Source: a virus. From it: 38,492 nt of DNA. Of the stretch, positions 2,587 to 17,055 are shown in pieces. Position numbers and translations under genes: made by a program. The notes under the pieces were generated by a model that was given only the letters and a program-made list of their open reading frames with translations, was not told the origin of the DNA and searched no databases. Numbering within the stretch: position 1 is the first letter of the stretch; every line of letters begins with the position of its first letter. The stretch covers positions 1 to 38,492 of the IMG/VR virus record IMGVR_UViG_3300038701_001197, one strand, 5' to 3'.

Positions 2587-3105
2587 GTGAGCACATACTA
2601 CCCAAGAGACATGCTAGAACATAAAGGTAAAAAGATTGAAGGTCATTTCAAAACATTTGATGATTATTTGAATTGGATTGGAGCAGAAATTCTTGAAAAA
2701 ACAAATCCATATGAGGTGTCACGATTTGTCGCAAATCAGATAGTCTGTGTTATTTATCATGGAAAGAGAGGGTTAACGTTTTCCAGCCAAGAAGCATTAA
2801 AAGTTCTTGAAGCATACAATCGTAAGCAGAAAATAAATGTAGCGGGAACAAAGCGCATAAGATTAGAGAAAGAGATAAAAGAAAAGATAAGGCGAAGAGA
2901 TGGCAATATGTGTTTTTATACAGGTGTAGAACTAACTGAAGAAACTGAATCTATTGAGCATCTGATACCAGTTAGTAAGGGCGGGAAAAACAATCTTGAT
3001 AATCTTGTTCTTTGCACGAAGCAAATAAATTATGAAATGGCTGATAAGCCACTAATTGAGAAGATAAGAATTAGAGATAAATTACTCCATAACAAGGAAA
3101 ACTAA
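2587..3105 (+). CDS. HNH endonuclease
   Basis: 172 residues with a GTG start behind GGAGAG. The first ~85 residues are an unrecognised helical domain. An HNH nuclease follows: a basic lead-in (KEKIRRRDGNMCFYTG), then EHLIPVSKGG with the first His, NNLDNLVLC with the Asn, and a final KQINYEM in place of the usual N-x-x-K/H. Only one Cys pair element (MCFYTG ... VLCTKQ) is visible, so a bound zinc is uncertain. HNH proteins in phages act as homing nucleases, in packaging or in host DNA attack. It is far from the terminase genes, so a mobile or defence role is more likely than packaging (inference). Confidence 0.8.
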   Translation: MSTYYPRDMLEHKGKKIEGHFKTFDDYLNWIGAEILEKTNPYEVSRFVANQIVCVIYHGKRGLTFSSQEALKVLEAYNRKQKINVAGTKRIRLEKEIKEKIRRRDGNMCFYTGVELTEETESIEHLIPVSKGGKNNLDNLVLCTKQINYEMADKPLIEKIRIRDKLLHNKEN

Positions 3106-5088: not shown

Positions 5089-5150
5089 AACCCCTCGGTT
5101 TGAGCATTGCCCCCACTACGCAATGACTAGAGGCTTGAGGGGTTTTATTT
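5089..5150 (+). terminator. intrinsic terminator of the left operon, with nested hairpin
   Basis: Stem AACCCCTC (5089-5096) pairs with GAGGGGTT (5137-5144), followed by TTATTT. Inside is a second perfect hairpin, CATTGC (5105-5110) with GCAATG (5120-5125). It starts 6 bp after the last stop of the rightward operon. Confidence 0.8.
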
Positions 5151-14533: not shown

Positions 14534-14598
14534 GTATATAAATATAATACACTTTTATTTGACATGCAAGTTATATTGTGTATTATATAATTATACAC
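14532..14598. promoter_or_regulatory. divergent switch: two promoters, two operators
   Basis: Rightward promoter: TTGACA (14559-14564), 17-19 bp, TTATAT-like -10 at 14583. Leftward promoter: TTGCAT on the minus strand (14569-14564), 17-bp spacer, TATATT (14546-14541). Operators with perfect TGTAT-N9-ATACA cores lie at 14532-14552, over the leftward -10 and start codon, and at 14578-14598, over the rightward -10; the latter is extended to GTGTAT/ATACAC. The two -35 elements share one base pair. This is the layout of a repressor-controlled genetic switch. Confidence 0.75.
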
Positions 14599-14794: not shown

Positions 14795-15058
14795 GTGGCG
14801 GTAGTATATAAGTATCCATTAACACTAGTTGGCAATCAAGATGTGTCTATGCCGGTGGGGGCTAAAATATTAACTGCCCAAGAGCAGGATGGTTGTATTT
14901 GTCTTTGGGCGGAGTGTCCGCAAGTGGAGAATGTGGAATTAAGAGAGATTATTATAGTTGGCACTGGTCACGATTACTTGCCTTCTGAGCTTCAATACAT
15001 CGCCACAGTGCAGATTGGTGCGTTTGTCTGGCATGTTTATGAGGGTAAAGGCAATTAA
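14795..15058 (+). CDS. phage beta-sandwich protein of DUF7352-like family
   Basis: 87 residues with GTG start behind AAGAGAAG. The sequence pattern YKYPLTLVGNQDVSMPVGAK, then LWAECPQ, IIIVGTGHDYLP and a final FVWHVYE is shared by many small phage proteins (the group I know as DUF7352). Function is not established. It sits between the switch-controlled first gene and the Acb2-like gene. Confidence 0.7.
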   Translation: MAVVYKYPLTLVGNQDVSMPVGAKILTAQEQDGCICLWAECPQVENVELREIIIVGTGHDYLPSELQYIATVQIGAFVWHVYEGKGN

Positions 15059-15059
15059 G

Positions 15060-15150
15060 GAACTCCCTTTGGGATAAAGAGCACTAGAACGTTAATAGTG
15101 GGTAATCCTTAGCGTGACTTTGTAGGTGGGAGAGAAACCTTCTTAATTTA
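15060..15150 (+). ncRNA. candidate structured intergenic RNA A
   Basis: Starts one base after the stop of the preceding gene. Positions 15060-15081 are nearly the same as 15410-15432 (GAACTCCC ... GGGATAAAGAG). It is followed by a perfect CACTA (15082-15086)/TAGTG (15096-15100) hairpin; CTCCC (15063-15067) could also pair with GGGAG (15128-15132). Seen directly: the shared motif and hairpin. Role unknown. Confidence 0.35.
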
Positions 15151-15169
15151 ATCAATAAAGGAAAAGACT

Positions 15170-15409
15170 ATGGTTGATAATCAACATAAAAAAATCAAAG
15201 GCTACAGAGATTTGACAGAAGAGGAAATCGCTTTAATGAACGAAACCAAAGACCTAGCTAGCAAATGCGGGGATTTTTGCCAGAAGCTGCACTTAGCTGA
15301 ATGTAACGGTAGTGAGATTGATAGACGTTGGTTGGCAATTGCCAAGACGGACTTACAGAAGGGTTTTATGTCGCTGGTAAGGTCAGTGGCAAAACCTGAA
15401 AGTTTTTAA
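15170..15409 (+). CDS. acb2: Acb2-like cyclic-nucleotide sponge (anti-CBASS/anti-Thoeris family)
   Basis: 79 residues, ATG behind AAAGGAAAAG. The two conserved blocks of the Acb2/Tad1-hook family are present: an N-terminal [20 protein letters not shown] and a C-terminal [20 protein letters not shown] followed by SVAKPESF. Known members are small helical-hairpin proteins forming hexamers that sequester cyclic di- and trinucleotides made by CBASS systems, so blocking host abortive defence. The central linker is shorter than in most homologues I remember (79 against roughly 90-110 residues). Neighbouring tRNA and RtcB genes suggest a counter-defence cassette. Symbol given by family resemblance, not by database comparison. 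Confidence 0.8.
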
Positions 15410-15660
15410 GAACTCCCCTAGGGGATAAAGAGTTGTGGTGCGGCGCTGAAAGTAGAAGCGCGGGTGAATAGGCCACTAGGTGTGATGCTGAGAAACTCGT
15501 TAAAGCCATTTTGCATCACCCAAGCAGGATTAACGCCCTGCCGCCACAACACTAAAAAGCTAATCAAGGTTTATGTTTGTACCAGCGTAGCAAAACAAAG
15601 TATTCGGGAGTTTCGAGCTTCTCCCAACACTCCTGAGCATGAGGTAAAAGGCTCTTTATA
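15410..15660 (+). ncRNA. candidate large structured RNA B, upstream of the tRNAs
   Basis: Begins one base after the Acb2-like stop. Base pairing seen: hairpin TCCCC/GGGGA (15414-15425); outer helix ATAAAGAG (15425-15432) with CTCTTTAT (15652-15659); GTTGTGG (15432-15438) with CCACAAC (15544-15550), continued by CGG/CCG; within it three hairpins, GCGCT/AGCGC (15443-15461), GTGATGC/GCATCAC (15482-15519), GCAGG/CCTGC (15524-15541). In the 3' half GGGAG/CTCCC (15606-15625). It ends 2 bases before tRNA-Pro, so it may be a precursor leader, an independent ncRNA, or an RtcB/RNase substrate. No known class recognised; not tmRNA, RNase P or group I intron by core motifs. Confidence 0.5.
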
Positions 15661-15662
15661 AG

Positions 15663-15739
15663 CAGGGTGTAGCTCAGACAGGTAGAGTGCCGCACTTGGA
15701 ATGCGGAGGTCGTTGGTTCAAGTCCAGCCACCCTGACCA
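15663..15739 (+). tRNA. tRNA-Pro(UGG)
   Basis: 77 nt including encoded CCA. Acceptor CAGGGTG (15663-15669) pairs with CACCCTG (15729-15735), discriminator A, then CCA. D-arm TAGCTC...GAGT, anticodon stem CCGCA/TGCGG with loop CTTGGAA, anticodon TGG; T-arm with TTCAAGT loop. Complete cloverleaf. Reads CCA/CCN proline codons. Confidence 0.95.
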
Positions 15740-15742
15740 TAT

Positions 15743-15816
15743 TGCCCCTTCGTCTAATGGTAGGACGCATCACTTTGAATGATGAAATCGTGGTTCGAGT
15801 CCACGAGGGGCAACCA
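15743..15816 (+). tRNA. tRNA-Gln(UUG)
   Basis: 74 nt including encoded CCA. Acceptor TGCCCCT (15743-15749) pairs with AGGGGCA (15806-15812), discriminator A, CCA. Anticodon stem CATCA/TGATG with loop CTTTGAA, anticodon TTG; T-loop TTCGAGT. Three bases separate it from tRNA-Pro, so both come from one precursor. The RtcB gene starts 18 bp downstream. Confidence 0.95.
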
Positions 15817-15834: not shown

Positions 15835-17055
15835 ATGAAGAAATTTAGCTACCACAAAACAGAAGGCGCTCCATTAAAATTGTGGGACTCACACCAAGCG
15901 TTTGATGAATCCGCAATGGAGCAGTTACGCAATGTTGCTAAGTTGCCTTTTATACATCGTCACATTGCTGGTATGCCTGATGTCCACTGGGGTAGAGGCG
16001 CTACAGTTGGCTCTGTAATAGCCACTAAGGGCGCTATTGTGCCTGCTGCGGTAGGAGTAGATATAGGCTGCGGAATGATGGCAGCAAGAACATCATTAAA
16101 TGCAAGTCAGTTACCAGACAACTTGCACACCATACGTTGTGATATAGAGGCCGCTGTACCTCACGGAAGAACCGACAATGGCGGCAAGAATGATATTGGC
16201 GGTTGGGTCGATGTTCCAAATCATATAAATAATATATGGTCACGCATGAATGAGTCGTACAAAGTAATTACTGATAAGCACCCAAAAGCAGCAGCGTTTA
16301 ATACTGCTTGTCATATTGGAACACTTGGTACAGGAAACCACTTTATTGAGGTGTGCTTAGATGAAGATGATGCGGTGTGGGTGATGCTACATTCTGGCTC
16401 TCGTGGAGCTGGAAACCGCATAGGCTCTTACTTTATTGAGAAAGCCAAAGAAGAAATGGAGCGTTATCACATTGATAAGTATTTAGCAGATAAAGACCTT
16501 TCTTATTTGGTGGAAAATACTGAGATGTTTGATGATTATGTACGGGCAGTGGATTGGGCACAGGAGTATGCGAGGATTAACCGTGAAGTCATGATGAGTG
16601 CTGTGATTGGCGTGCTTAAAAAACACTTACCCAAATTCACTACGGATGATGTCGCGGTTAATTGTCACCATAATTACGTACAAAAGGAAAACCACTTTGG
16701 CGCTAATGTCTGGTTGACCCGTAAAGGGGCAGTGCGTGCAAGAAAAGGTGATTTAGGAATCATTCCCGGCTCTATGGGTACTGGCTCTTTTATTGTGGAG
16801 GGGCTTGGTAATAAAGAATCTTTCTGCTCATGCTCACACGGCGCGGGGCGCGTTATGTCGCGAGGTGAGGCTAAGAAACTTATATCACTTGACCAGCACG
16901 TTGAGGCTATGAGAGGGATTGAGGCGAGGTTAGATAAGGACGTACTAGATGAAAGTCCAGCAGCGTATAAAGACATCGGCGCGGTTATGGCTGCGCAAGA
17001 TGACTTAGTTAAGATTAAGTACAGACTGAGGCAAGTAGTTAACGTCAAAGGTTAA
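15835..17055 (+). CDS. rtcB: RtcB-family RNA ligase
   Basis: 406 residues from ATG 15835 behind AAAAAGGTAATG; the longer open frame starts inside the tRNA and is rejected. RtcB joins RNA 2',3'-cyclic phosphate or 3'-phosphate ends to 5'-OH ends using GTP and Mn2+. Conserved metal-binding motifs are present: MPDVHWG (D49, H51), GVDIGCGM (D76, C79), GTGNHFIEV, HSGSRGAGN, NCHHNY, and SCSHGAGRVMSR with the guanylylated His at residue ~335. Length fits phage/bacterial RtcB. Directly follows two tRNA genes, which fits a role in repairing tRNAs cut by host anticodon nucleases. Confidence 0.95.
   Translation: MKKFSYHKTEGAPLKLWDSHQAFDESAMEQLRNVAKLPFIHRHIAGMPDVHWGRGATVGSVIATKGAIVPAAVGVDIGCGMMAARTSLNASQLPDNLHTIRCDIEAAVPHGRTDNGGKNDIGGWVDVPNHINNIWSRMNESYKVITDKHPKAAAFNTACHIGTLGTGNHFIEVCLDEDDAVWVMLHSGSRGAGNRIGSYFIEKAKEEMERYHIDKYLADKDLSYLVENTEMFDDYVRAVDWAQEYARINREVMMSAVIGVLKKHLPKFTTDDVAVNCHHNYVQKENHFGANVWLTRKGAVRARKGDLGIIPGSMGTGSFIVEGLGNKESFCSCSHGAGRVMSRGEAKKLISLDQHVEAMRGIEARLDKDVLDESPAAYKDIGAVMAAQDDLVKIKYRLRQVVNVKG

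What the first reader, a model, noticed from the sequence alone, without database searches (positions are those of the whole stretch)
15060..15660. Two related structured RNA candidates bracket the Acb2-like gene and lead into the tRNAs
Motifs at 15060-15081 and 15410-15432 are nearly identical (GAACTCCC...GGGATAAAGAG) and each starts exactly one base after a stop codon. The second heads a ~250-nt element: an 8-bp closing helix, a cloverleaf-like core with a 7-bp stem and three hairpins, and a further hairpin. It ends two bases before tRNA-Pro. I cannot match it to tmRNA, RNase P, 6S, a group I intron, or to GOLLD/ROOL-type phage RNAs, which are also often found near phage tRNAs but are larger. 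It may be a new ncRNA or a tRNA-cluster leader processed by RtcB or host RNases.
Basis: partly seen in the sequence, partly recalled or inferred. Interest (0 to 1): 0.72.

Follow-up and report, generated by a model that had tools for sequence, protein, structure and literature searches.

The report
tRNA-shaped phage RNA with swappable arm
The stretch in front of this phage's tRNA genes encodes a small RNA folded rather like a tRNA without an anticodon; it belongs to a family of more than 100 phage RNAs, absent from the main RNA-family library, that keep one scaffold but carry very different middle arms, so it is a common phage gene whose function is unknown.

Summary
The sequence features are mostly real, but the boundaries change. 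The 27-nt repeat exists; the two copies are not two related RNAs. Element 1 (15056-15169) folds no better than shuffles and matches no model. The real object is a 119-nt core, 15432-15550: a 9-bp outer stem, a D-like arm, a variable middle arm and a T-like arm (z = -3.3). The rest of the "250-nt element" is unsupported. A covariance model built from five phage RNAs, window excluded, finds the core at E = 3.3e-8. One strict D-arm pattern has at least 120 hits in IMG/VR; 90 of 120 distinct copies have the covarying outer stem and T-like arm, against 1-6 after shuffling. In an alignment of 37 members 98.8% of pair cells form, with compensatory changes in 16 of 21 pairs. A D-loop/T-loop contact covaries without exception (GC/GC 76, GU/AC 6). 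Cultured phages carry it (Persinger, POI1126, PotUPM1, Orimi01); a sister form lies in CUS-3 and 117 of 5,426 E. coli genomes. Rfam 15 does not recognise it. Arms appear exchangeable, and intact RNAs recur in unrelated flanks, which favours an independent RNA gene. Best guess: a trans-acting tRNA mimic, nearest in concept to Y RNA YrlA. The function is inferred, not shown.

The parts
15432..15550 (+). The structured RNA (core): 119-nt tRNA-like RNA
   Evidence: Model R2 built without the window hits 15434-15548, 43.4 bits, E=3.3e-8, the only hit in the window; R3, whose alignment includes the window, spans 15432-15550, E=4.6e-6; fold z=-3.3
15432..15440 (+). 5' strand of the 9-bp outer (acceptor-like) stem GTTGTGGTG; partner 15542-15550 CGCCACAAC
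   Evidence: 8 of 9 positions of this stem show compensatory changes in the family; the CUS-3 element has the same GTTGTGGTG...CGCCACAAC
15441..15461 (+). D-like arm CGGCG-CT-GAAAGTAGA-AG-CGC (stem 15443-15447/15457-15461, loop 15448-15456)
   Evidence: Pattern GCGGCGNNGRAAGNAGANNCGC: at least 120 IMG/VR hits; the two free stem positions pair in 113 of 121
15462..15523 (+). Variable middle arm (hairpin 15479-15488/15513-15521 with a 24-nt loop) in the place of an anticodon arm
   Evidence: Pair probability 0.97 or more; no sequence conservation across the family
15524..15541 (+). T-like arm GCAGG-ATTAACGC-CCTGC
   Evidence: All 5 pairs covary in the family
15452..15453 (+). D-loop side of the predicted D-loop/T-loop contact (G15452-C15534, U15453-A15533)
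   Evidence: GC/GC 76, GU/AC 6, no exception; helix 3
15542..15550 (+). 3' strand of the outer stem
15055..15081 (+). Copy 1 of the 27-nt repeat in front of the Acb2-like gene; function unknown, not a copy of the RNA
   Evidence: no CM hit
15406..15432 (+). Copy 2 of the 27-nt repeat, ending exactly at the first base of the RNA outer stem
15170..15409 (+). Acb2/Tad1 hairpin-domain protein (79 aa)
   Evidence: PF24729 E=1e-16
15663..15739 (+). tRNA-Pro (UGG)
15743..15816 (+). tRNA-Gln (UUG)
15835..17055 (+). RtcB RNA ligase
   Evidence: PF01139 E=7e-125
14559..14586 (+). Best promoter-like site (TTGACA-16-TATTAT, 11/12) upstream of the operon
   Evidence: consensus match only; the region has fewer such sites than its shuffles

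Best explanation
Window 15432-15550 is a gene for a noncoding RNA of a widespread phage family. SHOWN by comparison: a 9-bp outer stem, a D-like hairpin with loop GAAAG(C/U)AGA, a T-like hairpin with loop AGUA(G/A)CGC, a covarying D-loop/T-loop contact like a tRNA elbow, and a variable middle arm where a tRNA has its anticodon arm. INFERRED: the RNA is transcribed in the rightward operon (here with Acb2, tRNA-Pro, tRNA-Gln and RtcB), acts in trans as a folded tRNA mimic, and uses the constant scaffold for stability and docking while the middle arm carries the specificity. In this phage the most likely partner is a tRNA-handling protein: as a tRNA mimic without an anticodon loop it could occupy a host factor or tRNA-attacking nuclease while the phage tRNAs and RtcB replace and repair damaged tRNAs. 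Confidence: about 0.97 that it is a conserved structured RNA, about 0.5 that it acts in trans as a tRNA mimic, about 0.2 for the anti-nuclease role.
For: Homology: R2, trained on L254, L287, L292, L225 and L146 only, finds the window at E=3.3e-8; R1, built from the window alone, finds L071 330 nt upstream of another phage RtcB (E=0.002), and R2 finds it too (E=0.036). Covariation: 98.8% of cells paired (shuffled 69.9), score 0.739 (shuffled 0.158, slid partners 0.12 or less), 16 of 21 pairs with two-sided changes. Outer stem plus T-like arm found in 90 of 120 against 1-6 of 120 with shuffled 3' sequence. D-loop/T-loop contact 82 of 82. A sister form, with the conserved hairpin ACGAGGCGUCGNNNCACGCCUA in the middle arm, has outer stems with up to four pair types per position. 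Independent-gene behaviour: L380/L415, L380/L367 and L356/L384 have nearly the same RNA in unrelated flanks; L404/L418 have 93% identical upstream flank and the same stem but unrelated arms. Gene order [this kind of RNA]-tRNA-Pro-tRNA-Gln-tRNA-Arg-RtcB recurs in L146. YrlA, a tRNA mimic with D, T and acceptor arms, is encoded with rtcBA in some bacteria (PMC8394870) and has been proposed as a competitive inhibitor of an anticodon nuclease (PMC7790460).
Against: No expression data. tRNA and RtcB neighbours are the exception for the D-arm class (4 of 89 and 1 of 89). The outer stem has no conserved aminoacylation determinants, and is 9 bp where tRNA has 7. T-like loops are mostly non-canonical. 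The window's middle arm lacks the hairpin conserved in the CUS-3 sister form. The arm-swap argument rests mainly on one locus pair. In annotated phages the RNA often sits at the front of early or late operons, which also fits a cis-acting leader.
Confidence: 0.5

Rival explanations
1. Cis-acting operon leader: the RNA folds as it emerges and acts on RNA polymerase or on the downstream genes, for example as a protein-independent antiterminator like HK022 put RNA, or as a processing signal.
For: In cultured phages the element lies in long intergenic gaps near operon starts: between Q and holin in CUS-3 and Huey, in front of terminase genes in Aeromonas 62AhydR11PP and Sulfitobacter pCB2047-A, after early repressor regions in PotUPM1 and Orimi01, at an early operon in D14H. 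Put RNAs lie downstream of early promoters (PMC9378689).
Against: In the window it lies about 850 nt downstream of the promoter-like site, behind three genes. The same RNA occurs in unrelated flanks and the arm can be exchanged. Put is about 70 nt with two stem-loops and no tRNA-like elbow. One copy follows an integrase with a convergent gene downstream (Persinger).
Confidence: 0.27
2. Guide-like RNA: the constant tRNA-like scaffold holds a variable arm that base-pairs with host or rival nucleic acid (antisense, sponge or nuclease guide).
For: Constant scaffold with arms of 44 to 207 nt and no sequence conservation; one locus pair with apparent arm exchange (L404/L418).
Against: Most arms are themselves predicted to be structured; no target was sought or found; no protein partner is consistently adjacent.
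Confidence: 0.13
3. Degenerate tRNA gene or chance fold in a tRNA cluster.
For: It lies beside tRNA genes, and some sister members keep canonical D and T loops (L236, L249, L316).
Against: ARAGORN and Rfam find no tRNA there. Strong compensatory covariation in 37 members excludes decay. No anticodon arm was seen in the aligned members.
Confidence: 0.02

Closest known systems
Bacterial Y RNA YrlA (RF02553)
   Same: Modular RNA that mimics the D, T and acceptor arms of tRNA without decoding; encoded beside rtcBA in some bacteria (PMC8394870, PMC7790460)
   Different: The Rfam YrlA model does not match the window or the L377 element, where it matches a separate stem about 130 nt upstream; no Rsr-binding stem was recognised; the spread of arms is much wider here
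T4 stable RNAs rnaC and rnaD (species 1 and 2)
   Same: Stable phage RNAs of unknown function in a tRNA cluster; rnaC ends in a canonical T-arm and holds GAGTAGCG twice; expression confirmed by Northern blot (PMC9697503)
   Different: Models R2 and R3 do not match them; no D-like arm of this type
tmRNA tRNA-like domain
   Same: tRNA-like end with a long body in the place of the anticodon arm
   Different: ARAGORN finds no tmRNA; no tag reading frame identified; no conserved acceptor identity element; much shorter
HK022 put RNA
   Same: Phage RNA element near operon starts
   Different: About 70 nt, two stem-loops (PMC9378689); different fold
GOLLD and ROOL RNAs
   Same: Structured RNAs of phages, often near tRNAs
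   Different: Hundreds of nt; no Rfam match in the window

Membership tests
Phage tRNA-like scaffold RNA family (defined here) | Match to a covariance model built from other members | tested here: met
   R2 without the window: 43.4 bits, E=3.3e-8
Phage tRNA-like scaffold RNA family (defined here) | Outer stem with compensatory changes, enclosing a D-like and a T-like arm | tested here: met
   window row in A4
Phage tRNA-like scaffold RNA family (defined here) | D-loop/T-loop pair GC/GC or GU/AC | tested here: met
   window is GU/AC; 82 of 82 members conform
Sister form with hairpin ACGAGGCGUCGNNNCACGCCUA in the middle arm | That hairpin | tested here: not met
   No match in the window with up to 3 mismatches
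YrlA (RF02553) | Match to the Rfam model | tested here: not met
   No match in 15040-15662 up to E=10
YrlA (RF02553) | D, T and acceptor arms, no anticodon arm | tested here: met
   Architecture supported by covariation
YrlA (RF02553) | Ro60/Rsr binding stem and Rsr partner | tested here: inconclusive
   No YrlA stem match; the window's proteins were not searched systematically for Rsr
tRNA | Anticodon arm; detected by ARAGORN or Rfam tRNA | tested here: not met
tmRNA | ARAGORN tmRNA or Rfam match | tested here: not met
GOLLD, ROOL, group I intron, RNase P, 6S | Match to the Rfam model | tested here: not met
T4 rnaC/rnaD | Shared covariance model | tested here: not met
HK022 put RNA | Protein-independent antitermination activity | not testable with these tools
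   needs a transcription assay

The most novel reading that the evidence does not exclude
Phages of many bacteria carry a mobile gene for a tRNA-shaped scaffold RNA whose middle arm is exchanged like a cartridge, so that one conserved chassis delivers many different functional arms against host defences or rival elements.
Probability: 0.25. Interest if true: 0.92.

Novelty: new variant of a known kind. Interest (0 to 1): 0.78.

Why it matters
An RNA with at least 120 copies from a single strict pattern, present in cultured Pseudomonas and Ochrobactrum phages and, as a sister form, in 117 complete E. coli genomes, is missing from Rfam 15 and has no annotated feature under it in the E. coli records listed. 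It adds a large group to the few tRNA mimics known, and the constant scaffold with variable arms poses a question that can be tested in ordinary laboratory phages. The position beside tRNA-Pro, tRNA-Gln and RtcB suggests a link between tRNA repair and tRNA mimicry, as proposed for YrlA.

Tried and rejected
Scans with the 27-nt repeat gave only chance or coding matches, so the repeat is not the conserved part. BLAST with the element found nothing convincing. Gene-neighbour searches with RtcB, Acb2, DUF7352 and the helicase gave no sequence homologue by eye, but the RtcB set contained L146 and L130, whose upstream motif led to the sister form. A resemblance of 15650-15658 to boxA (GGCTCTTTA) was dropped: such sites are common in the window and not clearly more frequent near the family. 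The GGGTAATCC resemblance of element 1 to group I introns was dropped (no Rfam match). A neighbour-strand statistic with a crude ORF caller was not used as evidence because the caller is unreliable. T4 rnaC as a member was tested and failed. Literature searches found no description of this family in the held library, which lacks most subscription journals.

Full report
1. The window is a 38,492-base virus record. In the region are a DUF7352 gene, element 1, an Acb2/Tad1-hairpin gene, element 2, tRNA-Pro, tRNA-Gln and RtcB. The 27-nt repeat is real. Element 1 does not fold better than shuffled sequence (z = +0.9), and the whole 250-nt element 2 is only slightly better (z = -1.1 to -1.3). The cloverleaf-like core 15430-15552 is significant (z = -3.3). 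Other windows of the same phage reach similar z, so folding energy alone would not be enough.

2. First searches failed, then a detour worked. The repeat has no homologue in IMG/VR or in genome contigs beyond chance and coding matches. Looking at phage RtcB loci, tRNA-Pro recurs beside RtcB. Two loci, L130 and L146, share an RNA-like motif, ACGAGGCGTCGNNNCACGCCTA, in front of tRNA-Pro. That motif has 117 IMG/VR hits. It sits in a covarying helix, and one group is inside a tRNA-like body with acceptor, D and T arms. Its relatives include CUS-3, IME10 and Huey, between Q and the holin gene, and 117 of 5,426 complete E. coli genomes; the records listed have no feature under the match.

3. The window belongs to this group. 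A model made from the window core alone (R1) hit L071, upstream of another RtcB (E = 0.002), and fragments of the sister form. The converse test is the decisive one: R2, built from five sister-form RNAs without the window, hits only 15434-15548 in the window, 43.4 bits, E = 3.3e-8. E-values are from a shortened calibration and are rough.

4. The wider family. In 113 of 121 matches the two free stem positions pair. In 90 of 120 distinct copies a complementary outer stem and a T-like arm follow, against 1 to 6 with shuffled sequence. In an alignment of 37 members, including the window, 98.8% of cells are paired against 69.9% after shuffling; the covariation score is 0.739 against 0.158, and against at most 0.12 when partners are slid; 16 of 21 pairs have two-sided changes. 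The rows were selected for a complementary outer stem and T-like arm, so the pairing percentage there is partly by selection; the diversity of pair types, the D-stem and the loop contact were not selected. The D-loop/T-loop contact is GC/GC in 76 and GU/AC in 6 of 82, with no exception; the window is GU/AC. The middle arm was cut out of this alignment, because it shows no conservation. R3 also finds the RNA in cultured phages Persinger, POI1126, PotUPM1 and Orimi01.

5. Modules. Among copies with the same 9-nt outer stem, L380/L415, L380/L367 and L356/L384 have 89-97% identical arms in flanks no more alike than chance, while L404/L418 have 93% identical upstream flank and unrelated arms. The RNA therefore seems to move as a unit and the arm seems exchangeable; the second point rests mainly on one pair. 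The sister-form hairpin is one kind of arm content.

6. Known families. Rfam 15 recognises neither the window element nor the relatives tested. L377 carries a below-threshold YrlA match, but as a separate stem about 130 nt from its element. YrlA is the best functional analogue: a tRNA mimic with D, T and acceptor arms, encoded with rtcBA in some bacteria (PMC8394870), proposed as a competitor of an anticodon nuclease (PMC7790460). T4 rnaC and rnaD are stable tRNA-cluster RNAs of unknown function (PMC9697503) but do not match the models.

7. Function. Shown: a conserved RNA fold with a tRNA-like elbow. Inferred: independent gene, trans action, tRNA mimicry. Neighbourhood statistics weaken a special role in tRNA repair: the D-arm class is not enriched near tRNAs (4 of 89; random 3%) and only 1 of 89 loci has an RtcB. 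The sister-form hairpin class is nearer to tRNAs (29 of 84 within 1 kb; random 15%), and all listed neighbours are on the same strand. A cis-acting leader remains a serious rival because many copies lie near operon starts.

8. Limits. No expression data; function not tested. Prior description in journals outside the held library cannot be excluded. The host of the window phage is unknown.

Noticed in passing
L215-L331; first seen at L130:3840-3861 and L146:3496-3517: Hairpin motif ACGAGGCGTCGNNNCACGCCTA with 117 exact-match stretches in IMG/VR, enclosed by covarying closing helices (up to 14 bp), in tRNA-like bodies, beside or around real tRNAs, and in stand-alone forms; no Rfam match in those tested.
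   Followed up: partly
L070, L075, L082, L123, L129, L130, L132, L133, L134, L138, L140, L143, L146 and the window: tRNA-Pro, mostly UGG, lies within 250 nt of phage RtcB genes more often than other tRNAs do. A link between RtcB and tRNA-Pro damage is possible.
   Followed up: no
L377:239-301: A YrlA-like Y RNA stem (32.6 bits, below threshold) in which a stretch of 53 model positions is replaced by 2 nt, about 130 nt upstream of a tRNA-like scaffold RNA.
   Followed up: partly
L070:3023-3141: tRNA-like gene with encoded CCA, an enlarged anticodon loop and a long variable region (Rfam tRNA 33 bits over 119 nt).
   Followed up: no
L071:3898-3970: A long hairpin GGGACTGCGTATATTA...TAATATGCAGTCCC followed by ACCA, directly upstream of RtcB.
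   Followed up: no
window 5090-5142, minus strand: abiF RNA match just below the gathering score (36.0 of 37 bits, E = 0.0048).
   Followed up: no
window 15055-15081 and 15406-15432: The 27-nt repeat after two stop codons has no homologue found; copy 2 ends exactly at the first base of the RNA. Its role is unexplained.
   Followed up: partly
L348:1409-1547: T4 rnaC holds the string GAGTAGCG twice, like the T-like loop of this family, besides its canonical T-arm; the models do not match it.
   Followed up: partly
window, 255-nt windows starting at 3001, 5001 and 30501: Fold z-scores of -3.6 to -3.8, lower than that of the core; not examined.
   Followed up: no
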